Shown piece after piece: positions 52,506-64,000 of a DNA stretch of 64,000 nt (the first letter of the stretch is position 1; each line of letters starts with the position of its first letter). The stretch is from Flavobacteriia bacterium (GTDB lineage: Bacteria; Bacteroidota; Bacteroidia; Flavobacteriales_D; Crocinitomicaceae), in contig JACPDW010000010.1 of the NCBI GenBank assembly GCA_016183815.1, forward strand, positions 248,001-312,000, in the 5' to 3' direction. Both the position numbers and the translations under genes were made by a program. The notes under the pieces are model-generated. The model was not told the origin of the DNA, did no database searches, and was given only the letters and a program-made list of their open reading frames with translations.

Positions 52506-55295
52506 ATGGCACAGGACAAATATTTACACGAATACTTACCTGAGAAGTTAAGAGAATACCGAATTAATTTTTCAGACGTTCCAGAATTTATTCAAAAAAA
52601 CATTCGTTTTCCATTCTTTGATTGGCAAAAGCAAGCATTAGAAAATTTCTTAGACTATCAAAAGGTAAAGGAAATTGAAAACCCACAAGAGCCAACCCAT
52701 TTGTTATTTAATATGGCAACAGGTACAGGTAAAACCTTATTAATGGCTGCTCTTATATTACATTATTACGAAAAAGGGTATCGTCACTTTTTGTTTTTTG
52801 TAAACCAAAACAATATTGTTGGTAAAACAGAGGATAACTTAACAGACCCAGCGCACAACAAATATTTATTTTCAAATCCTATCGTAATTAATGATCAGAC
52901 AATAAATGTCAAAAAAGTTGATACTTTTTCAGATAACACTGAGGATATTGAAATTCTATTTACTTCAATACACAAATTACATAATTCAGTATATCAAGTA
53001 AAAGAAAATAGCATATTTCTTGAAGACTTACAAAGAAGAAACATTGTAATGTTGGCAGATGAAGCCCACCACTTAAACTCAGACACTAAAAAGAAAAAAG
53101 GTCAACTGGATTTGGAGGTAATTACAGAACTCCCTGAGAACGCAAGTGCAGAAATGATTGAAAAGAGTTGGGAACATACTGTGACAAAATTGATTTTACA
53201 AAAAGAGGGTGCAACCGATTCAGAAGAAAACAAGAATGTATTATTAGAGTTTACAGCAACCGTTCCAACAGATGAAAGTGTAGTTAAAAAATACATAGAT
53301 AAAACAATTTATAGGTTCGAGTTGAAAGACTTTTTAAAAGCAGGATATACCAAAGAAATCAATCTTGTTTCTTCCTCTTTCAATAAAAAGCAACGTGTCC
53401 TTCAAGCACTGCTTTTCAATTGGTTTCGTTATGAAATCGCTATAAAGAATAACCTACCAAACTTTAAACCAGTTATTCTATTCAGAAGTAAGTTTGTTGA
53501 TGAAAAAAACCCTGAAAATGTTCAAGAAGATTATGATTTTTTCAGAGAAGTAATAGACAATTTATCACAAAAAGATTTTGATTTTCTAACAAATTTTGAA
53601 ACAGAGCAAGTAGATAAAGTTTATGAAATGGGGCAAAGTCGTATTGTAGATATATCTAAATACATTGCAGAAAACAAATTAAACTACTCTTCAATAATAA
53701 CCTACTTAAAAGATGCTTTCAAGGATAGTAATTGCATTATTACTCACTCCAAAGATAAAAAGGCAGTTGGTAGGCGTGCAGAAGATAAAACAACACCTGA
53801 GCAAGATAAATTATTGAATAGTTTGGAAGACAAACAAAATCCAATCACAGCAATTTTCACTTGTCAACGTTTAACAGAAGGGTGGGATGTACTTAATTTA
53901 TATGACATCGTGCGTATGTATGAAGGTCAAAATACAGGTGGTTCAAACAAAGGTGCAGCAGGTAAAAGTACCGTTTCAGAAGTACAATTGATTGGTAGAG
54001 GTGTGCGTTACTATCCATTTGAATATGAAGACAAAATTCGCAATAAAAGAAAGTTCGATAAAGCACTAACTAATGAGTTAAGAGTGTTGGAAGAATTTTT
54101 CTTCCATAGTGATAAAGACGAAAGATATATTGCTGAATTAAAGAAAGAATTAAAACGTCAAGAGTTATTACCAGAAAAAGACAAACAACTCAAAATATTT
54201 GACATTAAACCCGAAATAAAAGAAGATAAAAATTCTTTTTATCATAAAGTAAAAATCTATAAAAACGACCGTAAACCAAACCCGAATAAAAAGAAACGTT
54301 CGCTTGAAGATTTAAAGAAAGATTGGGGTTTTGAATATAAAATTATTGAAAAATCTATTAGCGAAACCACTGTTAATTTTGAAGATAAAGCAGAGGATAA
54401 AACACGTTTAGAAACTGCCACTAAAGAAGGTAGAACGCTAACTCCAAAAATCAATGAGGTAGAAAGACATATTCTATACAAGGCTTTAAATATTCATTCT
54501 AAAAGAGATCAATCTATTCTCCGCTTTAATAAACTGAAAGAGGAACTGGACATTGAGCAAACGGATGATTTATTCAAAGATGAATTTATTGGTGGAATGA
54601 AATTAAAAATTTCAGTTCCTTCAAAATTCAATAACTTTTCAGACATTCCAAACAATGAACAAGTTGCAGTTTTAACTGCATTTTTCAATCAATTTGCAGA
54701 AGAACTTAGTAAGATATCTCATCCGTTCATCGGGTCAGAATTTGAGGCTGAAAAATTCAAAACATATTACGAAATTCCTAAAGCAATTTCTGTTGTAGAA
54801 GACCCTGAGAGCAACGATTTAGAAAGAGAACTAAAAGACAAAGATTGGTACGCACTAACTTCGTTTTATGGCACTTCAGAAGAAAAAGGTTTGGTAAAAT
54901 TTCTCAAAGAAACAATGGATAACTTCAAAGATAAATATGAAGACATTAATCTATTAAGAAACGAAGAGGTATACAAAATCTATGATTTTGACGAAGGAAG
55001 AGGGTTTATGCCAGACTTCTTACTTTTCCTAAAATCAAAAGGGAAGAATATGTATTATCAAGTCTTTATTGAGCCAAAAGGTTCACAATTCAAGGATGCC
55101 ACAGGTAGTTTTGAAAATAGTAAAGAAGGGTGGAAAGATAAATTCCTAACCGACATTTCGAGTAAATACGCAGGTACTTCAATTTTAAAATCAGAAAACA
55201 AAGAATACAAATTAGTTGGTTTACCGCTATACAACATATCTGCTTCCTCAAACTTTAAAAAATCTGTAAATGAACACTTAGAAATAGAAATTTAA
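52506..55295 (+). CDS. res: Type III restriction endonuclease subunit (Res)
   Basis: Res is the ATP-driven cutting subunit. The SF2 helicase core has Walker A ATGTGKTLLM near residues 71-80, the DEAH box in LADEAHHLN near 184, and motif VI-like VQLIGRGVRYY. The C-terminal nuclease domain shows PDFLLF near 836 with FIEPKG (E856-x-K858), the PD-ExK pattern. The length of 929 is normal. It ends 1 nt before the 42-codon ORF. Confidence 0.95.
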   Translation: MAQDKYLHEYLPEKLREYRINFSDVPEFIQKNIRFPFFDWQKQALENFLDYQKVKEIENPQEPTHLLFNMATGTGKTLLMAALILHYYEKGYRHFLFFVNQNNIVGKTEDNLTDPAHNKYLFSNPIVINDQTINVKKVDTFSDNTEDIEILFTSIHKLHNSVYQVKENSIFLEDLQRRNIVMLADEAHHLNSDTKKKKGQLDLEVITELPENASAEMIEKSWEHTVTKLILQKEGATDSEENKNVLLEFTATVPTDESVVKKYIDKTIYRFELKDFLKAGYTKEINLVSSSFNKKQRVLQALLFNWFRYEIAIKNNLPNFKPVILFRSKFVDEKNPENVQEDYDFFREVIDNLSQKDFDFLTNFETEQVDKVYEMGQSRIVDISKYIAENKLNYSSIITYLKDAFKDSNCIITHSKDKKAVGRRAEDKTTPEQDKLLNSLEDKQNPITAIFTCQRLTEGWDVLNLYDIVRMYEGQNTGGSNKGAAGKSTVSEVQLIGRGVRYYPFEYEDKIRNKRKFDKALTNELRVLEEFFFHSDKDERYIAELKKELKRQELLPEKDKQLKIFDIKPEIKEDKNSFYHKVKIYKNDRKPNPNKKKRSLEDLKKDWGFEYKIIEKSISETTVNFEDKAEDKTRLETATKEGRTLTPKINEVERHILYKALNIHSKRDQSILRFNKLKEELDIEQTDDLFKDEFIGGMKLKISVPSKFNNFSDIPNNEQVAVLTAFFNQFAEELSKISHPFIGSEFEAEKFKTYYEIPKAISVVEDPESNDLERELKDKDWYALTSFYGTSEEKGLVKFLKETMDNFKDKYEDINLLRNEEVYKIYDFDEGRGFMPDFLLFLKSKGKNMYYQVFIEPKGSQFKDATGSFENSKEGWKDKFLTDISSKYAGTSILKSENKEYKLVGLPLYNISASSNFKKSVNEHLEIEI

Positions 55296-55296
55296 T

Positions 55297-55425
55297 ATGC
55301 CAAATCAAAACCTCATACTGAACATGCTTACTTTCAACCATCTGGTTGAAGTTTTAAATAGTCAAAACATAGACACTGGTAAAAAATCAGAGTTTTTGAA
55401 ATATATCCAAACCAACATTTCATGA
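55297..55425 (+). CDS. 42-codon ORF whose start duplicates the pAgo N-terminus
   Basis: The 42-residue product begins MPNQNLILNM, then LTFNHLVEV. The pAgo at 59984 begins MPNQNLILNM, then VTFNHPVEV; 17 of 19 residues agree. The DNA differs at about 10 of 57 positions, eight of them third codon positions. The shared start follows TAAT in both places (stop TAA, one base, ATG). After residue 19 the similarity ends (VLNSQNIDTGKKSEFLKYIQ). Its stop overlaps the SIR2 start (ATGA). It may be a real small gene or the 5' stub of a replaced pAgo. Confidence 0.6.
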   Translation: MPNQNLILNMLTFNHLVEVLNSQNIDTGKKSEFLKYIQTNIS

Positions 55426-56609
55426 ACCTAAATATTTTAAAAAATACAATTCAATCTTGTAATATCAATTTTTTGATAGGTTCTGGGCTTTCACGTGATT
55501 ATTTAATTACTCTCGGTAACATTGAAACACTAATTGAAAAGGTTGAAACAACAGAGTGTGAGGAAATCGTAAAAAACATCATTAAAGCTTCTCTTTTTAA
55601 AAGATATTTTGAAGAGGTGATGCTTAAAAATGTTGATTCTTATATCATGTCTGAAAGTGAAATAACCGATTTTGATGCTACACTCAAAAATTACAAAGAC
55701 TTTCTAAAATGGCTAAATACAATCCTTTTGTATAGATATATGCCTATCCATAGTAAACAAGTAAACCTTTTTACGACAAATATTGATTTATTTTTTGAAA
55801 GAGCATTTGAGGAAACTAATGTTGAGAGTAATGATGGTTTTAAAGGCAGGATTAAGCCAGTGTTTAATTTGAGTAATTTTCAAAAATCCTATAAGAAAAC
55901 AAGTCTTCATTATAAAAACACTTCTGAAATACCTGTTTTCAACTTGTTAAAACTTCACGGATCTGTTAATTGGAGAAAAGAAAACGAAAATATCGTTTTA
56001 TCCGATTTTTCAGAAATACATGAAGCACATAAAATCCTTGGAAAGTTGGGGGTAATTATTAATGTGACGGATGAAAGCACTATAGATTCATTAAAATTAG
56101 ATGCTGAAAAAATTAAGTCTTCGATAGATGAAACTTTGTTGATGTCGTTTTTTGAGTCATATAACAAGATTCAAGTTGTTAACCCAACCAAAGAAAAATT
56201 CAAAACTACTTTATTGAACACGTATTATTACGAACTACTTAGGCTTTTTGCAAATGAAATGGAAAAAGAAAACACTATTTTATTTGCAATGGGATTTTCA
56301 TTTGCTGACGAACACATCAAGGAGATAACAATTAGGGCTTTAAATTCCAATCCTACTGCACAGTTATATATTTTCGCTTTTGATAATCAAGCAAAAACAG
56401 CAATTGAAAATAACCTTGAATTTAGTAAGAATCGCTTTCTGAATGGCAATATTAAAGTTATTGACCCTGCTACTTTTTATCAATCTAATTTAGAAGACGA
56501 AAACCTTGAAAAAGTAGACAATTTCAATTTTGAAAATATCAATAAAGTTGTTTTTGAAAATCTTGCCCTTAAAGTAAACCCAACAATTCGCTTAGTAGAT
56601 GCAAAATGA
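55422..56609 (+). CDS. SIR2-like NADase, defence effector
   Basis: The SIR2-like fold is clear: FLIGSGLSRDY (residues 18-28), TTNIDLFF (118-125, NAD-binding Asn-x-Asp), LHGSVNW with the catalytic His179, and a late FAMGFSFADEHI. Defence SIR2 proteins destroy NAD+ to stop an infected cell. The length of 395 is usual. It overlaps the HerA gene by 11 nt. SIR2-HerA pairs are a known antiphage system, so this call is well supported by both motifs and neighbour. Confidence 0.88.
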   Translation: MNLNILKNTIQSCNINFLIGSGLSRDYLITLGNIETLIEKVETTECEEIVKNIIKASLFKRYFEEVMLKNVDSYIMSESEITDFDATLKNYKDFLKWLNTILLYRYMPIHSKQVNLFTTNIDLFFERAFEETNVESNDGFKGRIKPVFNLSNFQKSYKKTSLHYKNTSEIPVFNLLKLHGSVNWRKENENIVLSDFSEIHEAHKILGKLGVIINVTDESTIDSLKLDAEKIKSSIDETLLMSFFESYNKIQVVNPTKEKFKTTLLNTYYYELLRLFANEMEKENTILFAMGFSFADEHIKEITIRALNSNPTAQLYIFAFDNQAKTAIENNLEFSKNRFLNGNIKVIDPATFYQSNLEDENLEKVDNFNFENINKVVFENLALKVNPTIRLVDAK

Positions 56610-58476
56610 TGTAAACATATCAGACCAAGTTATTTTAAAGGATTCAATTTTTAGAATTGGAAAGGTCTTTTCTGTAGAAGGTCGAATTGTTAAAATAAAA
56701 GTCGATAAGCAGAAAAACGCCTCTCATTTGTTATACAAAGGAGAATTACTCAAAAATGTTGGTGTTGGTGGGTATATCAAAATCATTAAGGGTTATATTT
56801 CAATAATCGGTAAAGTAGAAAGTGAACAAGTTCAAGAAGATAAATCAGTCAATCATGCTTACAATAAAGAAGAAGATAAAATAAACCGTATTCTAAATGT
56901 TAGTTTACTGGGGTTTATTGACAGTAATAACTTTGAAAGAGGAATCAAAGAATTACCACTCATTGACAATGAATGTTTTTTACTTGATAAATCTGAGATT
57001 GAGCAAGTACATGACTTTGTTGATGAAAAAAAGGACGTTAAACTTCGACTAGGTGTACTTGCTTTAGAAAGCGGCCAACCTATTCATATTGGTGTAAATG
57101 GTTTGTTTGCAAGTCATATAGGGATTTTTGGCAATACTGGTAGTGGTAAATCATATACATTAGCCAAACTTTACCGTACGCTATACACTAATTTTCAGAA
57201 ACAAAAGAAATTCAACAAAAATGCGAAATTTTTGCTTTTCGACTTCAATGGTGAATACAATTTAAGTGATACAATTATTTCAGACAAAAACGTAATCAAC
57301 CTTAATACAAAAACTAAAGAAGGTGAACAGAAGTTAGTCTTTAATGAGAAAGACTTATTGAACATTGAATTATTCTCTATCATAGCAAATGCAACAGAGA
57401 AAACACAACAGCCATTTTTAAAACGTGCTTTAGATTACTATCAATATGTTCTAAAATCTGATGATTCACTTCTTCATTATAAAAATCTTTTAAGGAACAA
57501 AATAGAGCACATTTTATCTATGTCAGATAAAAACAAAGCTTATTTGCTTTTGGATTACGTGAGAGAAATATTACCAACAAGCATTGAAGATGGTGTTGAA
57601 GTAAGTTTAACAGATGATTTTAGTTGGCACGGTGTCAAATCTACTTTTTATAAAGTACCTAATAATGACTATGATTTTTTCGATCAAAAGCCAGAATTAA
57701 TAAAAGAAACCAAACTTTATAAACACGTAGATAAATACGAGTTTCCTGAAGATATTATTTCAAAAGTGATAGACTTCTTATATCTCCAGTTAATTCATGA
57801 CGTTTTAACTAACAGGGCTCAAAATGAACATATAGCACCAGTAATAAACAAGCTCAAAAGTTTTCAGAAAGATTTTAAAAAGGTTATTGAAATTAGCTCT
57901 GATAAAACTACAGACTTTTGGAATGGTAAGAATTTCACGGTCATTAACTTGAATGATGCAAATTTGAGTACTAAGAAACTAATCCCTTTGCTTGTGTCAT
58001 TCAAATTGTATTCAGAACATAAAAACCAAAAAAAAGAAACTGTAGATAAGTACTTAAACATCATTATTGATGAGGCTCATAATATTTTATCCTATGAATC
58101 GCAGAGAGAAAGTGAATCGTGGAAAGATTATAGGCTTGAAACTTTTGAAGAAATCATAAAAGAAGGAAGAAAGTTTGGTGTGTTCCTCACTATTGCAAGT
58201 CAAAGACCTTCGGATATTTCTCCAACTATAATTTCTCAACTTCATAATTATTTTCTTCATAGATTGATTAATAACAGGGATATACAAGCTGTTGAAAAGA
58301 CTATATCTTATTTAGACAAGGTATCATTTGAATCATTGCCAATTCTACCCACAGGCGTATGCATCCTTGCGGGTTTAATGGCTCATATTCCTGTCATTGT
58401 TAAAATTGATGCAATAGAGAAGAAACATGAACCAAACAATAAAACAATTGATTTGGTATTTAATTGGAAAGACTAA
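56599..58476 (+). CDS. HerA-like hexameric ATPase, partner of SIR2
   Basis: The HerA/FtsK-like ATPase has an N-terminal barrel-like domain (residues ~1-130), Walker A GNTGSGKS (178-185) in ASHIGIFGNTGSGKSYTLAK, and Walker B LNIIIDEAHN near 487. FLTIASQRPSDISPTIISQL is the sensor region. The length of 625 is normal. In the SIR2-HerA system HerA assembles with the SIR2 subunits and controls their NADase or nuclease activity. It overlaps sir2 upstream by 11 nt and is followed after 6 nt by the DUF4062 gene. Confidence 0.9.
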   Translation: MQNDVNISDQVILKDSIFRIGKVFSVEGRIVKIKVDKQKNASHLLYKGELLKNVGVGGYIKIIKGYISIIGKVESEQVQEDKSVNHAYNKEEDKINRILNVSLLGFIDSNNFERGIKELPLIDNECFLLDKSEIEQVHDFVDEKKDVKLRLGVLALESGQPIHIGVNGLFASHIGIFGNTGSGKSYTLAKLYRTLYTNFQKQKKFNKNAKFLLFDFNGEYNLSDTIISDKNVINLNTKTKEGEQKLVFNEKDLLNIELFSIIANATEKTQQPFLKRALDYYQYVLKSDDSLLHYKNLLRNKIEHILSMSDKNKAYLLLDYVREILPTSIEDGVEVSLTDDFSWHGVKSTFYKVPNNDYDFFDQKPELIKETKLYKHVDKYEFPEDIISKVIDFLYLQLIHDVLTNRAQNEHIAPVINKLKSFQKDFKKVIEISSDKTTDFWNGKNFTVINLNDANLSTKKLIPLLVSFKLYSEHKNQKKETVDKYLNIIIDEAHNILSYESQRESESWKDYRLETFEEIIKEGRKFGVFLTIASQRPSDISPTIISQLHNYFLHRLINNRDIQAVEKTISYLDKVSFESLPILPTGVCILAGLMAHIPVIVKIDAIEKKHEPNNKTIDLVFNWKD

Positions 58477-58482
58477 TAAATT

Positions 58483-59982
58483 ATGCCTAAAAAGAGAATA
58501 TTCATAAGCAGTGTACAAGCAGAGTTTGCCAACGAACGGCAAGCCCTGTATGAATACATCTTGTCTGACCCACTATTAGGAAAGTTTTTCGAACCTTTTT
58601 TGTTTGAAAGACTGCCAGCAGTTGACCACCGTGCAGATGAAATGTATTTACATGAAGTAGAACAGTGCAACATATACTTAGCCTTATTGGGTGTAAATTA
58701 TGGTTTTGTGGATGAACAAGGTATTTCTCCTACCGAAAAAGAATTTGACCACGCTACAACACATCACAAAACAAGATTAATTTACCTTACCAACCATGCT
58801 TCTAATCAACGGGAGGACAAACAAAATACCTTCATTACAAAAGCACAATCCGTATTGGTTCGCAAACGATTTTCAACGATTGAAGAACTAAAATCTGCTG
58901 TATATGCATCATTGGTGAATTATTTAGTAGAAAAAGAAATCATCCGTACGGGTCCTTTTGATGCAACTTTACACGCAACCGCTACGCTTGACGATTTAGA
59001 TGCGGAAAAAATAAAAGACTTTGTTCGCGTTGCACGCTCTAAAAGAGGCTTTCCTTTACAGGAAACCGCTCCAATTGAAGACATTTTAACGCACCTCAAT
59101 TTATTAAATGATGGTCGCATTACCAATGCAGCCATTTTGCTTTTCGGCAAAGAACCGCAACGCTTTTTTATCAATTCAGAAGTGCGTTGTGCCTATTTTC
59201 ACGGGAATGTTATTGAAAAACCAATTCCATCTTATAAAGTTTACAAAGGGGATGTTTTTGAATTGGTAGATCAGGCAGAAGAATTTGTATTATCAAAATT
59301 AGATTATGCAGTAGGCACACGCTCACAAGATACTTCCATACCGGGTAAATATGAAATACCAAAAGAAATTGTTGCAGAAGCAATCGTAAACGCAATAGCG
59401 CATAGAGACTATACCAATAATGGTAGTGTTCAAGTAATGTTATTCCGTGACAGATTAGAAGTATTTAACCCTGGTGCTTTACCACTTGGTTGGACTACTG
59501 AAAAATTAAAGAAAGTACATACTTCTGTTCCTGCAAATCCTTTATTGGCAGAACCCATGTATTTAAAGGGCTACATTGAAAGATTAGGTACGGGAACAGC
59601 TGATATAGTGCGTATTGCTCGTGAAAACAACCTAAAAGAACCCGAATTTGAACAAGAAGATACGTTCAAAATAACCATCTACCGACCAACTACCGACCAA
59701 GTTACCGACCAAGTTACCGTAGAAGTTCCGCAGTACTTCCGCAGTACTTCCGTAGAAGTTAGAAATCTAATAAAAGTGTTAGACGGTGAAATGAGTAGGA
59801 AGATGATACAAGAAATATTAGAATTAAAACATGAAGGTAATTTTAGAGAAAATTACTTAGAACCTGCGCTAACAAACGGATATATCGAAATGAAATATCC
59901 CGACAGCCCAAACCACCCAAAACAAAGGTATTTACTAACCAAAAAAGGAGAAAATCTGAAATATGAACTAAAAAAGAAATAA
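58483..59982 (+). CDS. DUF4062 plus HATPase-type (AlbA-2/RecG-like) ATP-binding protein
   Basis: The 499-residue protein begins with DUF4062 (RIFISSVQAEFANERQALYEYI, to about 120), seen in many NLR-type and defence proteins. A Schlafen/AlbA-2-like middle follows, then a HATPase_c_4-type domain (EAIVNAIAHRDYTNNGSVQVML, then NPLLAEPMYLKGYIERLGTG). Near residues 400-425 the chain reads TTDQVTDQVTVEV, coded by 11/12-bp tandem repeats. A winged-helix C-terminus ends it. Similar proteins with TDQV repeats are common in this phylum. It is 1 nt before the pAgo gene. Confidence 0.85.
   Translation: MPKKRIFISSVQAEFANERQALYEYILSDPLLGKFFEPFLFERLPAVDHRADEMYLHEVEQCNIYLALLGVNYGFVDEQGISPTEKEFDHATTHHKTRLIYLTNHASNQREDKQNTFITKAQSVLVRKRFSTIEELKSAVYASLVNYLVEKEIIRTGPFDATLHATATLDDLDAEKIKDFVRVARSKRGFPLQETAPIEDILTHLNLLNDGRITNAAILLFGKEPQRFFINSEVRCAYFHGNVIEKPIPSYKVYKGDVFELVDQAEEFVLSKLDYAVGTRSQDTSIPGKYEIPKEIVAEAIVNAIAHRDYTNNGSVQVMLFRDRLEVFNPGALPLGWTTEKLKKVHTSVPANPLLAEPMYLKGYIERLGTGTADIVRIARENNLKEPEFEQEDTFKITIYRPTTDQVTDQVTVEVPQYFRSTSVEVRNLIKVLDGEMSRKMIQEILELKHEGNFRENYLEPALTNGYIEMKYPDSPNHPKQRYLLTKKGENLKYELKKK
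59681..59760 (+). repeat. 11/12-bp tandem repeats inside the DUF4062 gene
   Basis: Units are ACCGACCAACT (11), ACCGACCAAGTT (12) twice, ACCGTAGAAGTT (12), CCGCAGTACTT (11) twice and CCGTAGAAGTT (11). Gain or loss of one 12-bp unit keeps the frame; of one 11-bp unit breaks it. The first 12-bp copies encode TDQV. Confidence 0.75.
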
Positions 59983-59983
59983 T

Positions 59984-62053
59984 ATGCCCAATCAAAACCT
60001 TATACTCAATATGGTCACATTCAACCATCCAGTTGAAGTGAAACAATTCGGTTTGTTCCGTGACGAATTTAATAATAGCCAAAGACTACACAAGTCTTTA
60101 TGGCCTTTTGAATTACAAGAATCAAACCCTGAATTGTGGGATGAGGAAGAATTGGAATTTCTTTATACAGATTTTGAAACAATAGAAGGCGCAGACTTTA
60201 CAACAGATATAGATTTAAACAATAGTAAACGTTTCGCGAAAAGATATTATACCAAACTCATAAGTTTGCACTTTGCAAACATTGCAGACGTTACAAATCC
60301 CAATTTTGTAAAAGATGTTGAAGTCTGGTTCAAACCTAAATCTCAAAGCAATCAAGAATGGACAGTTTACAGCAAGTTCACGGTTAAGGTCAACATCAGT
60401 AGAATTACAAAACATCCTGAATTACTGCTTTCTTATGAGGGTGATACACGGGTTTTGAATAAACCAATTTTAGAGGTAGATGCAGAATCGACCTTATTCA
60501 AATGGGTAATTCACAACGGTATAAGATACCAATACGAAACCCTTGATTTTGAAACCAAAGCAGACATTGATAATATTTACCCTGTACTAAATAATCCCTT
60601 GCGTTCTGCCTTAGAGTTAGAAACAAGTTTCAAACGAGTTCAGAACAAATACAAAAACTATCACGACCACATCAAGCATTTCTTTGACAATTATATCAAT
60701 ACAGAAGAGTTTAAACAAGTCATTCCTTTGCGTGATGAAGATTTTATAGCAGTCAAAGATATTCGCGTAAAGCAAACAAGTAATGGAAGTAACAGCCTTA
60801 CATTTGGTAAAAAGAGTGGAGTTCAAGGAATTGGGATTAGCCCATACAACGGAATATTAAATAACGGTCCATACCTACCATCACCTTTTTCACATATTAA
60901 TATTTTCTTTATTTGCCACGAAGCAGATACCAATACAGCAAATAAATTATACTCATACTTTAAAGAAGGACTTGGAAATGGAGCATACAAATTTCCGAGT
61001 CTTGCTACATTATTAAAAACACCTTTGAATATTTCTAAAAATGATCAAATAAAATTCAAAGACATCAACAACCCAATTCCAGAGATACGCTCTCAACTAA
61101 GTGAAAAAACATTTGATAATAATAAAAGATACATTGCAATTTATGTTACTCCAATAACCAAAGAGGAAAAAGACCCCGAAAAAAAAGAATATTACTACCG
61201 TGTTAAAGAGGAACTACTCAAATATGGTGTTACCTCTCAGGTAGTAGAAACAGAAACAGTAAATGATAGTGGATTTAAATTTAGTCTTCCAAACATAGCC
61301 ATTGCAATCCTTGCAAAGTTGCAAGGTGTTCCATGGCGGTTAGACCGTTCAATGTACAATGAATTAGTGGTTGGCGTTGGAGCATTTAAACCTGTAAACT
61401 CAAAACACCGCTACATTGGTAGCGCATTTTGTTTTTCAAACAATGGCTTATTTCAAGGGTTTGAGTGCTACACAGATAACGACACATACAAATTAGCAGG
61501 TTCAATAAGTAAAGCCGTTAAGATGTACGCAAACAACCATTCGGGAGTCAAGCGATTGGTAATTCACTTCTACAAGCAAATGAGTAGAGAAGAATACGAA
61601 CCAATCGAAAGAGAACTCAATAATTTAGGCTTAGACATTCCAATCGTTATCATCACCATCAATAAAACAGAATCATCAGACATTGTTGCATTTGATAAAA
61701 ATTATGACGGTTTAATTCCAATAAGCGGAACGTATATCAATGTTGGCTTCAATCAATTTTTATTAAACAACAACACACGCTACACAGGAACACCTTCAGA
61801 CAAAATTGATAGTTACTCATTTCCTGTAAAACTAACAATCCGCAGTACAGATAAAACAATAATGGAGGATGCCAAAACAATCAACAACTTAGTTGACCAA
61901 GTTTACCAATTCAGTCGCATGTACTGGAAATCCGTAAAACAGCAGAACCTCCCAGTAACAATAAAATACCCCGAAATGGTAGCCGAAATCTTCCCTCACT
62001 TCGAAGGAGAAGTAATCCCATCATTCGGAAAAGATAATCTTTGGTTTTTGTAA
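59984..62053 (+). CDS. Long prokaryotic Argonaute (pAgo), predicted nuclease-inactive
   Basis: Prokaryotic Argonautes bind a guide nucleic acid and its target. The MID-PIWI half is plain: KLQGVPWRLD near residue 445, LVVGVGAF (461-468), RLVIHFYK (524-531) and INVGFNQFLLNNNTRYTG. The first catalytic Asp (usual G-x-D) is Gly466; the second, usual in HRDG, is Tyr530 in HFYK. So cutting is probably lost. The first ~350 residues are an N/PAZ-like region with no clear motif. The length of 689 fits long pAgos. It lies between the DUF4062 gene (1 nt) and the RT (5 nt). Confidence 0.85.
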   Translation: MPNQNLILNMVTFNHPVEVKQFGLFRDEFNNSQRLHKSLWPFELQESNPELWDEEELEFLYTDFETIEGADFTTDIDLNNSKRFAKRYYTKLISLHFANIADVTNPNFVKDVEVWFKPKSQSNQEWTVYSKFTVKVNISRITKHPELLLSYEGDTRVLNKPILEVDAESTLFKWVIHNGIRYQYETLDFETKADIDNIYPVLNNPLRSALELETSFKRVQNKYKNYHDHIKHFFDNYINTEEFKQVIPLRDEDFIAVKDIRVKQTSNGSNSLTFGKKSGVQGIGISPYNGILNNGPYLPSPFSHINIFFICHEADTNTANKLYSYFKEGLGNGAYKFPSLATLLKTPLNISKNDQIKFKDINNPIPEIRSQLSEKTFDNNKRYIAIYVTPITKEEKDPEKKEYYYRVKEELLKYGVTSQVVETETVNDSGFKFSLPNIAIAILAKLQGVPWRLDRSMYNELVVGVGAFKPVNSKHRYIGSAFCFSNNGLFQGFECYTDNDTYKLAGSISKAVKMYANNHSGVKRLVIHFYKQMSREEYEPIERELNNLGLDIPIVIITINKTESSDIVAFDKNYDGLIPISGTYINVGFNQFLLNNNTRYTGTPSDKIDSYSFPVKLTIRSTDKTIMEDAKTINNLVDQVYQFSRMYWKSVKQQNLPVTIKYPEMVAEIFPHFEGEVIPSFGKDNLWFL

Positions 62054-62058
62054 AAAAA

Positions 62059-64000
62059 ATGGCAGACTTAAAAGATCAGTTTCTAAATAAAGAGAATTTC
62101 TACTTGGCATTTAAGCGGTTGAAATTTCATTACTCACAGTCAAATGAGTGGTATGACCCAATAGAATTATATTCTTTTGAGGCTAATTTAGCAACCAACA
62201 TATTTCTGTTGATTGAACGAGTTAAAAATGAGAACTTTGAAGCCCATAAAATACACCTATTACCATTTCCAAAAGCAAATAAAAATGGAGCAAATAAAAT
62301 TCGTCCGTTTTATAAGATAAATATTGAAGACCAAATAATTTGGTTAGCTGTTGTGAATGTTATTGGAGATTTTTTTGAGTCTAATTTTCAAAGTTGGAAT
62401 TATGGGAATAGGTTATACCGGCCTATTTGGTTTACTGAAAATAGTGATGGTAGTTCAGAGATTAATAAAGGTTCGACAAAAAATACATCATCTTATATTT
62501 ATAGAAAATGGAGTCAAAGTTGGCCATTCTTTAGACGTCATATAAACATGACTATTCGTGCTCTGTCAAAAGGCAACAATTTAACAGTAGATGATTTCGA
62601 AAATGATATTGAAAAGGTCATCTACGAAGATGAAATGTCAAAAGAACACAAAGAATACAACTATCTTGATGGCAATTACTGGGCTTTATCAGAAAGTCAG
62701 GAGCTTTATTGGCTAACCTTAGATTTTGAAAAATTCTTTCCATCTATCCAACCTGACCTAATATTACAAAACATCAAAGAAATTCTTATAAATCAATATA
62801 ATAGGGATGATGTTAGTTTAATAATTTCAAGGATTGAAAAGTTATTAAAACCTAAAGTTTGTTTTTCTGGTTGGAGCCTTGATGATTCGATAGAGTTAAA
62901 AAACTATTTTGTAAACGACAAATCCGATAATTGCAAGGGTATTCCGACAGGGTTACTTGTTGCAGGTTTTTTAGCAAATGTAGCTTTATTAGAGCTAGAC
63001 AAAAAAATTAATTCTTGGATTAACCGTAATCGAAATCTTGCATATTTTAAGTTTGTAGACGATCAAGTGATAATCGCTAAATCTAATGAAGCTATAAAAT
63101 CATTTCTTGATTTTATTCATTTTGAGTTAGCAGGATTAAATTCAAACATTGTATTTAATGATGAGAAAATTGAGCCCGAAATATATAACTATGATCAAAA
63201 AACAGGCTTTTCTCAAAAAGAATCTTTAAATGATAGCGATAACAAGCTTAATGTAACATATCCTGAACCATTTCTTACCAATGCCCTTATGCAAATATCT
63301 AATTTGAATGGGGATGAGTTTTCATTAATGGACGAATCAGAATTGGAAAACAGTGAAAACGATTTAAAGTTTTTCCTTCTAACCGATTTCAATGACTCAG
63401 GAATAAGAAGAGATACAAGAGTTTCGTTTGCAGCTATGCGCTTGTGTAAAATAGCTAAATATTTAGAACCAAATTTCTTTCTTTTCGACCAGAATTATTC
63501 AAATATCAATCCCGATTTAATTGAAGAAAATAAATCCATAGAATTAAATAAAATTCAACTCCGTTACAAACGAATTTTTGACCTTTTGTTAAAAGCCACA
63601 ATAGAATTTCCTGATAAATTAAAATTATGGAAGAGGTGTGTTGAATTATGCTATATTTCTGGAATTGATAAAATAGACGAAATCTATCTATCCGTTGATA
63701 AAGCGAATATCCACGCAGCGAGTAAGTCTTATATCAAAGCATATATTCAAATCCTTTTAGTTGAGTTCATGCTTCAAGCAAAATCCCGTCTGTTTGAAAA
63801 GTATTCATCCTATTGGGATGCCTATCGTTTAAATCTTTTTATCTCAAATGTCTCAAAATTAGAAGTGGTATCACCTAATGAAAATCACATTTTAAAATCC
63901 TCCTCATCCTTATTTCATTTGATACAAGATTTTGTCCAAAATTCAAACTCTGACATTTATACAAACGAAGATTCAGAATACTCTTTCGAAGATTATTTTT
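62059..64000 (+). CDS. Reverse transcriptase (unknown-group/Abi-type), 3' end outside window
   Basis: I translated this from ATG at 62059; the frame stays open to the window end (647 codons). RT motifs are present: a motif-1-like NKIRPFYKINIEDQI near residue 79, motif A LDFEKFFPSI with Asp222, motif B GIPTGLLVAG (294-303) followed by FLANVAL, and motif C FVDD (332-335). Phe replaces the usual Tyr of YxDD. The C-terminal part after ~400 is long and helical, unlike group II intron maturases. No intron or retron RNA fits upstream, since pAgo ends 5 nt before. Defence-type RTs (UG/DRT) are the best guess. Confidence 0.8.
   Translation, partial: MADLKDQFLNKENFYLAFKRLKFHYSQSNEWYDPIELYSFEANLATNIFLLIERVKNENFEAHKIHLLPFPKANKNGANKIRPFYKINIEDQIIWLAVVNVIGDFFESNFQSWNYGNRLYRPIWFTENSDGSSEINKGSTKNTSSYIYRKWSQSWPFFRRHINMTIRALSKGNNLTVDDFENDIEKVIYEDEMSKEHKEYNYLDGNYWALSESQELYWLTLDFEKFFPSIQPDLILQNIKEILINQYNRDDVSLIISRIEKLLKPKVCFSGWSLDDSIELKNYFVNDKSDNCKGIPTGLLVAGFLANVALLELDKKINSWINRNRNLAYFKFVDDQVIIAKSNEAIKSFLDFIHFELAGLNSNIVFNDEKIEPEIYNYDQKTGFSQKESLNDSDNKLNVTYPEPFLTNALMQISNLNGDEFSLMDESELENSENDLKFFLLTDFNDSGIRRDTRVSFAAMRLCKIAKYLEPNFFLFDQNYSNINPDLIEENKSIELNKIQLRYKRIFDLLLKATIEFPDKLKLWKRCVELCYISGIDKIDEIYLSVDKANIHAASKSYIKAYIQILLVEFMLQAKSRLFEKYSSYWDAYRLNLFISNVSKLEVVSPNENHILKSSSSLFHLIQDFVQNSNSDIYTNEDSEYSFEDYF

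What the first reader, a model, noticed from the sequence alone, without database searches (positions are those of the whole stretch)
59681..59760. Tandem repeats of 11 and 12 bp in the DUF4062 gene: possible on/off switch
Two adjacent copies of CCGCAGTACTT (11 bp) follow three related 12-bp units within the coding sequence. Loss or gain of an 11-bp copy would shift the frame and stop the protein before its winged-helix end. Loss of a 12-bp copy would only shorten the TDQV stretch. The DUF4062 gene is directly before pAgo, so a frameshift might also lower translation of pAgo. Mixed unit lengths of this kind suggest past slippage.
Basis: partly seen in the sequence, partly recalled or inferred. 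Interest (0 to 1): 0.6.

Follow-up and report, generated by a model that had tools for sequence, protein, structure and literature searches.

The report
Repeat hinge in a phage-defence gene
A short repeated stretch of DNA in a bacterial anti-phage gene is real, but it looks less like an on/off switch than like an elastic hinge at which relatives of this gene have exchanged their end domain, possibly the part that senses phages.

Summary
The repeat is real: seven units of 11,12,12,12,11,11,11 bp (59681-59760), between the HATPase_c_4 and C-terminal winged-helix (wH) domains of a DUF4062 protein; a 2026 preprint describes DUF4062 as an anti-phage TIR-like NADase. The on/off reading is not favoured: of 18 bacterial genes found with 11-bp units here, 16 are in frame, and the two others carry further damage. 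Arrays at this linker are general (75 of 107 hits; 72 with 11/12-bp periods or multiples) and vary faster than their flanks, mostly by whole 12-bp units. Most informative: in related genes DNA 94-99% identical up to the array is followed by a different array and wH. In 25 of 79 pairs (24 from one genus) the DNA after the array differs; 0 of 64 differ further upstream; in L148/L150 similarity resumes just after the stop. So the array marks a border of module exchange. The same DNA units occur in unrelated phage genes; in one phage pair a 23-bp (11+12) difference shifts the frame. That the array promotes exchange, that the wH senses phage, and that the window gene itself takes part are inferences.

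The parts
58483..59982 (+). DUF4062 - HATPase_c_4 - winged-helix gene, 499 aa
   Evidence: ORF; Pfam DUF4062 1.2e-19, HATPase_c_4 2e-18, Fic-like_C 2.5e-23
58495..58755 (+). DUF4062 domain (aa 5-91), TIR-like; S82 P83 T84 E85 E87 invariant in the window protein and eight homologues
   Evidence: Pfam; alignment; Foldseek matches to SARM1 TIR and nucleoside deoxyribosyltransferases; NADase function from preprint PMC13174449
59425..59676 (+). HATPase_c_4 domain (aa 315-398)
   Evidence: Pfam
59681..59727 (+). first part of the array: ACCGACCAACT (11), ACCGACCAAGTT x2 (12), ACCGTAGAAGTT (12)
59728..59760 (+). second part of the array: CCGCAGTACTT x2, CCGTAGAAGTT (11 bp each)
59755..59940 (+). C-terminal winged helix (Fic-like_C, aa 425-486), the module that is exchanged in relatives
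   Evidence: Pfam; exchange in relatives, not seen in the nearest relatives
59984..62053 (+). pAgo gene, starts one base after the DUF4062 stop
   Evidence: Piwi 3.4e-14, PADLOC pAgo 5.8e-258

Best explanation
The array encodes a length-variable hinge between the conserved body (DUF4062 NADase plus ATPase) and a C-terminal winged helix of a defence protein, and it marks the left border at which that C-terminal module is exchanged between related genes. Slippage adds and removes units; 12-bp units change linker length by four residues, 11-bp units are kept almost only in combinations that leave the winged helix in frame. Shown: position, unit lengths, whole-unit variation, frame retention, and replacement of array plus winged helix between closely similar flanks in relatives. 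Inferred: that the array helps the exchange, that the winged helix senses the phage, and that the window gene itself takes part.
For: Array at this linker in 75 of 107 HATPase_c_4 hits (score >=12; periods 12: 53, 11: 15, 22 or 24: 4, 21: 3) against 0 of 105 control stretches just upstream. Pairs with flanks >=97% identical: array length differs by 12 or 24 bp in 5 of 9 bacterial and 8 of 40 phage pairs; flank gaps in 0 of 9 and 3 of 40. Exchange: of 79 pairs with a conserved HATPase side, 25 score <0.45 after the array (14 have no hit at all); of the 64 with the next segment upstream, 24 differ after the array and 0 upstream. L148/L150: 93.9% over 363 bp, no similarity over array and wH, 92.6% over 349 bp from just after the stop. 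L027/L046 (not among the 25): 98.75% over 400 bp, then another array and another HTH. In 101 pairs similarity runs to the stop in 38, ends in the array in 49, about 25-46 bp before it (as measured) in 14, inside the wH in 0. L031, L035 and L151 share the last ~400 bp before the array at 92-95% with different wH cores; L031 (same place as L354) carries DUF4062. In the window's own family L021 keeps 62% body identity with a different HTH, and L014 and L020 carry a second wH with a second array. In KpSwz, a DUF4062 NADase, an HTH/winged auxiliary domain binds the phage portal (PMC13174449).
Against: 24 of the 25 discordant pairs come from one genus (g215) and stand for only a handful of events. 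Four of the 25 are partial (0.39-0.44): L035, L036 and L037 against L040 share part of the wH, and L164/L171 align at 83% right through, so that pair is divergence rather than a swap. The window gene and its nearest relatives show no swap (L009-L011: body 77%, wH 69-77%). Some of the 49 ends inside arrays are only copy-number gaps between genes with the same module. In the L031/L035 group similarity resumes inside the last part of the wH, so flank homology alone could drive the exchange. Sensor function of this wH is by analogy only.
Confidence: 0.58

Rival explanations
1. Frame-shift contingency switch: gain or loss of an 11-bp unit turns the winged-helix end (and perhaps coupled pAgo translation) off and on.
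For: Both other frames stop by 59760. In the phage pair L072/L087 (88% identical over 1.9 kb) a 23-bp difference (one 12-bp and one 11-bp unit) shifts the frame: stop-to-stop ORF 416 vs 317 codons, the lost end still open in another frame. The own-genome remnant L008 and the gene L363 are out of frame across 11-bp arrays.
Against: 16 of 18 bacterial and 36 of 37 coding phage arrays with 11-bp units are in frame. Only two perfect 11-bp copies here. Genes L041, L150, L153, L154 with 11-bp arrays have equal array length at 87-93% flank identity. Out-of-frame L177 and L211 have 12-bp arrays, and by my reading the frame change beside the array is not a unit change.
Confidence: 0.1
2. Ordinary neutral low-complexity linker: slippage in a tolerant disordered region, with no role in exchange or control.
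For: The linker (aa 391-420) is modelled with pLDDT 26-30, but most of the HATPase is also below 50 in this 9-sequence model, so this says little. Many unit sequences are tolerated. Arrays also occur in apparently non-coding remnants (L357, L361, L370).
Against: Unit length is almost confined to 11-12 bp (72 of 75 arrays), and module borders coincide with the array.
Confidence: 0.24
3. A dispersed DNA minisatellite shared by Bacteroidota and phages: the ACC-n-CAAGT unit spreads as DNA and lands in linkers and loops because its common forms have no stop codon in the sense frames.
For: Two adjacent 11-bp units in 34 and 12-bp units in 51 viral stretches; the 12-bp pattern read backwards gives 0 (no such control was run for the 11-bp pattern). 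Arrays sit in a loop of a pyrimidine-dimer-glycosylase-like phage protein, where three aligned isolate relatives show none, in a gene distantly related to one of Flavobacterium phage immuto, and between genes. ACCGACCAAGT and ACCCACCAAGT are stop-free in all six frames, ACCCCCCAAGTT in five.
Against: In bacterial genomes scanned without regard to gene, 20 of 22 first loci are wH genes or lie in apparent remnants of them, so it does not land at random. Most 12-bp coding phage arrays use one frame (TxQV), which points to protein-level selection. The window's CCGTAGAAGTT units do carry a stop in other frames. The immuto gene itself has no array. No donor or mechanism was found.
Confidence: 0.08

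Closest known systems
Swarozyc (DUF4062 TIR-like NADase defence, e.g. KpSwz; preprint PMC13174449)
   Same: DUF4062 domain with a conserved Glu-containing motif, defence-island setting, C-terminal HTH/winged domain
   Different: The window protein has a HATPase_c_4 region and a repeat hinge before its winged helix; similarity of that winged helix to the KpSwz auxiliary domain was not tested. In that paper's main text 'linker' occurs 0 times and the 4 'repeat' passages concern other things; I did not read the whole text
Type IC HsdS specificity subunits (EcoR124 / EcoR124/3) with tetra-amino-acid tandem repeats
   Same: Four-residue repeats in a hinge, change in copy number, recombination of modules around them (details recalled; seen here only as reference titles in passages of PMC6158711)
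   Different: Unrelated protein family; here there are also frame-breaking 11-bp units, and the exchanged part is a C-terminal winged helix
Simple-sequence-repeat phase-variable (contingency) genes (recalled)
   Same: Frame-breaking tandem repeat inside a coding sequence
   Different: Few perfect copies, and nearly all natural alleles found are in frame

Membership tests
Phase-variable contingency locus | Frame-breaking repeat in or before the coding sequence | tested here: met
   11-bp units; other frames stop at 59720 and 59760
Phase-variable contingency locus | ON and OFF alleles both common among natural copies | tested here: not met
   16 of 18 bacterial arrays with 11-bp units in frame, exceptions further damaged; 36 of 37 in phages. 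Between species, not within one
Phase-variable contingency locus | Mixed alleles within a clone | not testable with these tools
   No reads or same-species strains held
DUF4062 NADase defence (Swarozyc) | DUF4062 domain with conserved catalytic Glu | tested here: met
   Pfam 1.2e-19; E85 and E87 invariant in 9 of 9 aligned sequences, window included; which of them corresponds to E97 of KpSwz was not aligned; TIR-like matches
DUF4062 NADase defence (Swarozyc) | C-terminal HTH/winged auxiliary domain binding the phage portal | not testable with these tools
   Winged helix present (Fic-like_C); binding needs experiment
DUF4062 NADase defence (Swarozyc) | Location in a defence island | tested here: met
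   Neighbours: type III R-like, SIR2, HerA, pAgo, RT_UG6
HsdS-like repeat hinge with module exchange | Whole-unit copy changes with conserved flanks | tested here: met
   in relatives and phages; not shown for the window gene itself
HsdS-like repeat hinge with module exchange | Exchange of the adjacent module at the repeat | tested here: met
   in relatives, mostly one genus; for the window gene inconclusive
HsdS-like repeat hinge with module exchange | HsdS homology | tested here: not met
   Pfam lists only DUF4062, HATPase_c_4 and Fic-like_C

The most novel reading that the evidence does not exclude
The 11/12-bp array is a dedicated recombination hinge by which NADase-type defence proteins swap their phage-sensing winged helices and tune sensor spacing, with the same repeat units carried by phages of related hosts, so that repeat DNA shared by phage and host helps renew immune specificity.
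Probability: 0.25. Interest if true: 0.78.

Novelty: new variant of a known kind. Interest (0 to 1): 0.55.

Why it matters
If the array is the border of a swappable sensor, DUF4062 and AlbA/HATPase defence proteins become a modular receptor family: the array tells where to cut and which part to test against phages, and natural module swaps offer ready-made pairs for finding triggers. It also warns against reading every frame-breaking repeat as a phase switch: here natural copies mostly keep the frame.

Tried and rejected
pAgo as a fixed partner: none of the window's neighbours (ResIII, SIR2, HerA, pAgo, RT) matched in 17 homologous loci (tblastn 1e-6), but these loci reach at most about 5-6 kb to either side and several far less.

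Strain-level variation in plasmids: in the E. coli, P. syringae and V. parahaemolyticus genes fetched, the annotated gene ends within or just after the HATPase part; the Aeromonas gene runs on but was not examined, and no array was scored in any of the four, so there was no intraspecies test. Repeat-only DNA queries against phages returned nothing, probably because of BLAST's low-complexity filter. The search for related loci in viral contigs found no relative of the window protein. The second unit type (CCGYAGWASTT) has no exact match in viral contigs. A 3-unit exact pattern matched 0 of 295 class genomes. A looser pattern matched 6 of 395 genomes (9 places), its reversed control 5, so it is weak evidence.

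Codon bias in arrays (ACC, CAA, GTC; 71 loci) hints at a DNA-level component, but loci are related. Antisense reading in Gly-rich phage ORFs (L093, L095, L108, L125) may be chance. Two of the 34 viral stretches (L057, L078) hold just two units in a protein of another kind and may be chance. The AlphaFold model is weak (mean pLDDT 62); its best PDB match by E-value, a Fic protein, superposes poorly. A first pair script timed out, and a tblastn call with a bad option gave empty rows.

Print: the searches listed no paper whose title or opening abstract describes a repeat hinge in these families. Searches listed none at all; may miss the name because of its accent. Only parts of PMC13174449 and passages of PMC6158711 were read.

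Mended on checking: control count, linker pLDDT, Fic scores, the status of L164/L171 and of the L040 pairs, and what was read of the papers. Because L164/L171 and the L040 pairs are only partly swaps, confidence in the best explanation went from 0.60 to 0.58 and the neutral-linker rival from 0.22 to 0.24.

Full report
Observation. The tandem repeat is present as described, with a small correction: seven units of 11,12,12,12,11,11,11 bp at 59681-59760. It gives the four best TRF scores of the window and the window's best stretches at periods 11 and 12, above 100 simulated windows at those periods. It lies between HATPase_c_4 (aa 315-398) and a winged helix (Fic-like_C, aa 425-486) of a 499-aa DUF4062 protein. 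The neighbours are a type III restriction-like helicase, SIR2, HerA, pAgo and a UG6-type reverse transcriptase.

What the protein is. A 2026 preprint reports DUF4062 as a TIR-like NADase used in abortive anti-phage defence; in KpSwz an HTH/winged auxiliary domain binds the phage portal (PMC13174449; abstract, found passages and the first part of the Results read). In the window protein and eight homologues SPTExE is invariant. The weak model (mean pLDDT 62) matches SARM1 TIR and deoxyribosyltransferases; its best match by E-value is a Fic protein, with a poor superposition.

The array is a family feature. I examined 107 HATPase_c_4 hits, window included: 19 loci and 88 of the listed matches, mostly the best-scoring (28 delivered with that call, 60 fetched). 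Of these, 75 have a tandem array with score 12 or more just after the ATPase domain: period 12 in 53, 11 in 15, 22 or 24 in 4, 21 in 3. The 105 control stretches just upstream reach at most 9. Three Fic-family plasmid genes carry 12-bp units with scores 23, 14 and 10 (L207-L209). A scan of 395 genomes with a pattern that ignores genes found arrays in 22 genomes (reversed control in 2). Of the first locus of each, 16 lie directly before a wH in one reading frame, one is such a gene broken at the array (L363), three lie downstream of an intact gene among fragments of another (L357, L361, L370), one is apparently non-coding (L372) and one looks like chance (L373). Pfam confirmed the wH in six of the 16; the rest were judged by tblastn or by eye.

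Variation. Between genes with flanks at least 97% identical the array differs by 12 or 24 bp in 5 of 9 bacterial and 8 of 40 phage pairs, with flank gaps in 0 of 9 and 3 of 40; three more phage pairs differ by 1 bp, where gap placement is unclear. At 90-97% identity the length differs in 27 of 33 bacterial and 19 of 24 phage pairs, by multiples of 12 in 24 and 17 of these. Four genes with 11-bp arrays (L041, L150, L153, L154) have equal length at 87-93% flank identity.

Frame. I counted 18 bacterial arrays with 11-bp units at this linker: in frame are the window, L009-L013, L039, L041, L044, L150, L153, L154, L163, L174, L176, L204 (16); out of frame are L008 and L363. L008 is a remnant in the window's own genome that also lacks aa 32-353; L363, found by pattern, has a further stop. 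Of all 107 hits, three are cut by the contig end, and 102 of the other 104 read at least 225 bp past the ATPase; the exceptions are L008 and L177, the latter with a 12-bp array and a frame change that is not a unit. In phages, 36 of 37 coding arrays with 11-bp spacings are in frame. One of these, L059, was flagged by the script but is in frame on reading. Rows with 11-bp spacings dropped before this count: L080, L122, L124 (non-coding or unclear) and L092, L101, L104, L105, L131 (finder artefacts). Many of the 37 are near-identical contigs. The exception L087 differs from L072 by 23 bp, one 12-bp and one 11-bp unit, and its ORF is 317 instead of 416 codons although the lost end is still open in another frame. 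So unit changes that break the frame do occur, but they are rare among the copies seen. This does not look like a balanced on/off locus.

Exchange at the array. In 78 loci with arrays, 79 pairs share the 250 bp before the array (identity times coverage at least 0.8); in 25 of these the 200 bp after it score below 0.45: 14 have no hit, 7 score 0.24-0.34 and 4 score 0.39-0.44. Where the segment further upstream could be compared (64 pairs), 24 were discordant after the array and none upstream. L148 and L150 are 93.9% identical over 363 bp up to the array, share nothing over array and wH, and are 92.6% identical again over 349 bp just after the stop. L027 and L046, not among the 25, are 98.75% identical over 400 bp, then carry different arrays and different HTH domains. 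L031, L035 and L151 share the last ~400 bp before the array at 92-95% and have different wH cores with a similar tail; L031 is a DUF4062 protein (as L354). Less clear: L035-L037 against L040 share part of the wH, and L164/L171 align at 83% throughout. In 101 pairs similarity ends in the array in 49, about 25-46 bp before it (as measured) in 14, inside the wH in none, and runs to the stop in 38 (some of the 49 are only copy-number gaps). All but one of the 25 pairs come from one genus (handles of g215). In the window's closer family L021 has another HTH at 62% body identity, and L014 and L020 have a second array and wH. The window gene and its nearest relatives L009-L011 show no swap.

Phages. 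The same units occur in viral contigs: 34 stretches with two 11-bp units, 51 with 12-bp units (three loci in both lists), and 0 for the 12-bp pattern read backwards. They sit in a loop of a pyrimidine-dimer-glycosylase-like protein (Pfam just below its cut-off; phrog_624); the three aligned isolate relatives L212-L214 show no array there (395 isolate records match the protein). They also sit in a gene whose matches in the phage collection, over its first ~40 aligned residues only, are four Flavobacterium phage records, a Microcystis phage and two uncultured phages, and in five loci without a stop-free frame longer than 68 codons (L090, L105, L122, L129, L131). The isolate gene of phage immuto has no array on reading.

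Reading. The best-supported account is a slippage-prone hinge, kept in frame, that coincides with the border of an exchangeable C-terminal module. That the module senses phage is inferred from KpSwz; that the array promotes exchange is inferred from the coincidence of borders. Type IC HsdS subunits with tetra-residue repeats are the closest analogue in how it works (recalled; seen only as reference titles), not a relative.

Noticed in passing
L087 1-9865 and L072 (viral contigs): Natural phage pair in which the array differs by one 12-bp plus one 11-bp unit and the gene is frame-shifted, with the downstream frame still open.
   Followed up: yes
G000:C19:127468-127999 (L002, L004, L008): Second, decayed copy of the gene in the same genome: aa 32-353 missing, out of frame across an 11-bp array, stops inside the array.
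   Followed up: partly
L090, L105, L122, L129, L131: Same 12-bp units between phage genes, near TTTGTGACAA-type motifs; function unknown.
   Followed up: partly
L370 1500-1700, L361, L357: Arrays, about 16 copies in L370, in apparently non-coding remnants downstream of an intact HATPase-wH gene.
   Followed up: partly
L014 5001-6791 and L020: Genes with a second array plus winged helix at the C-terminus.
   Followed up: partly
L054 5986-7489 (Legionella hackeliae plasmid): DUF4062 homologue annotated as two overlapping genes, split in its N-terminal part, not at the array; the L. anisa copy is annotated as one gene.
   Followed up: no
window 52506-63999: Dense defence cluster: REase_III, SIR2, HerA, DUF4062-ATPase-wH, pAgo, RT_UG6, all on one strand.
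   Followed up: no
loci: Unit length is almost confined to 11 or 12 bp although the unit sequences differ; protein repeats alone would also allow 9, 15 or 18.
   Followed up: partly
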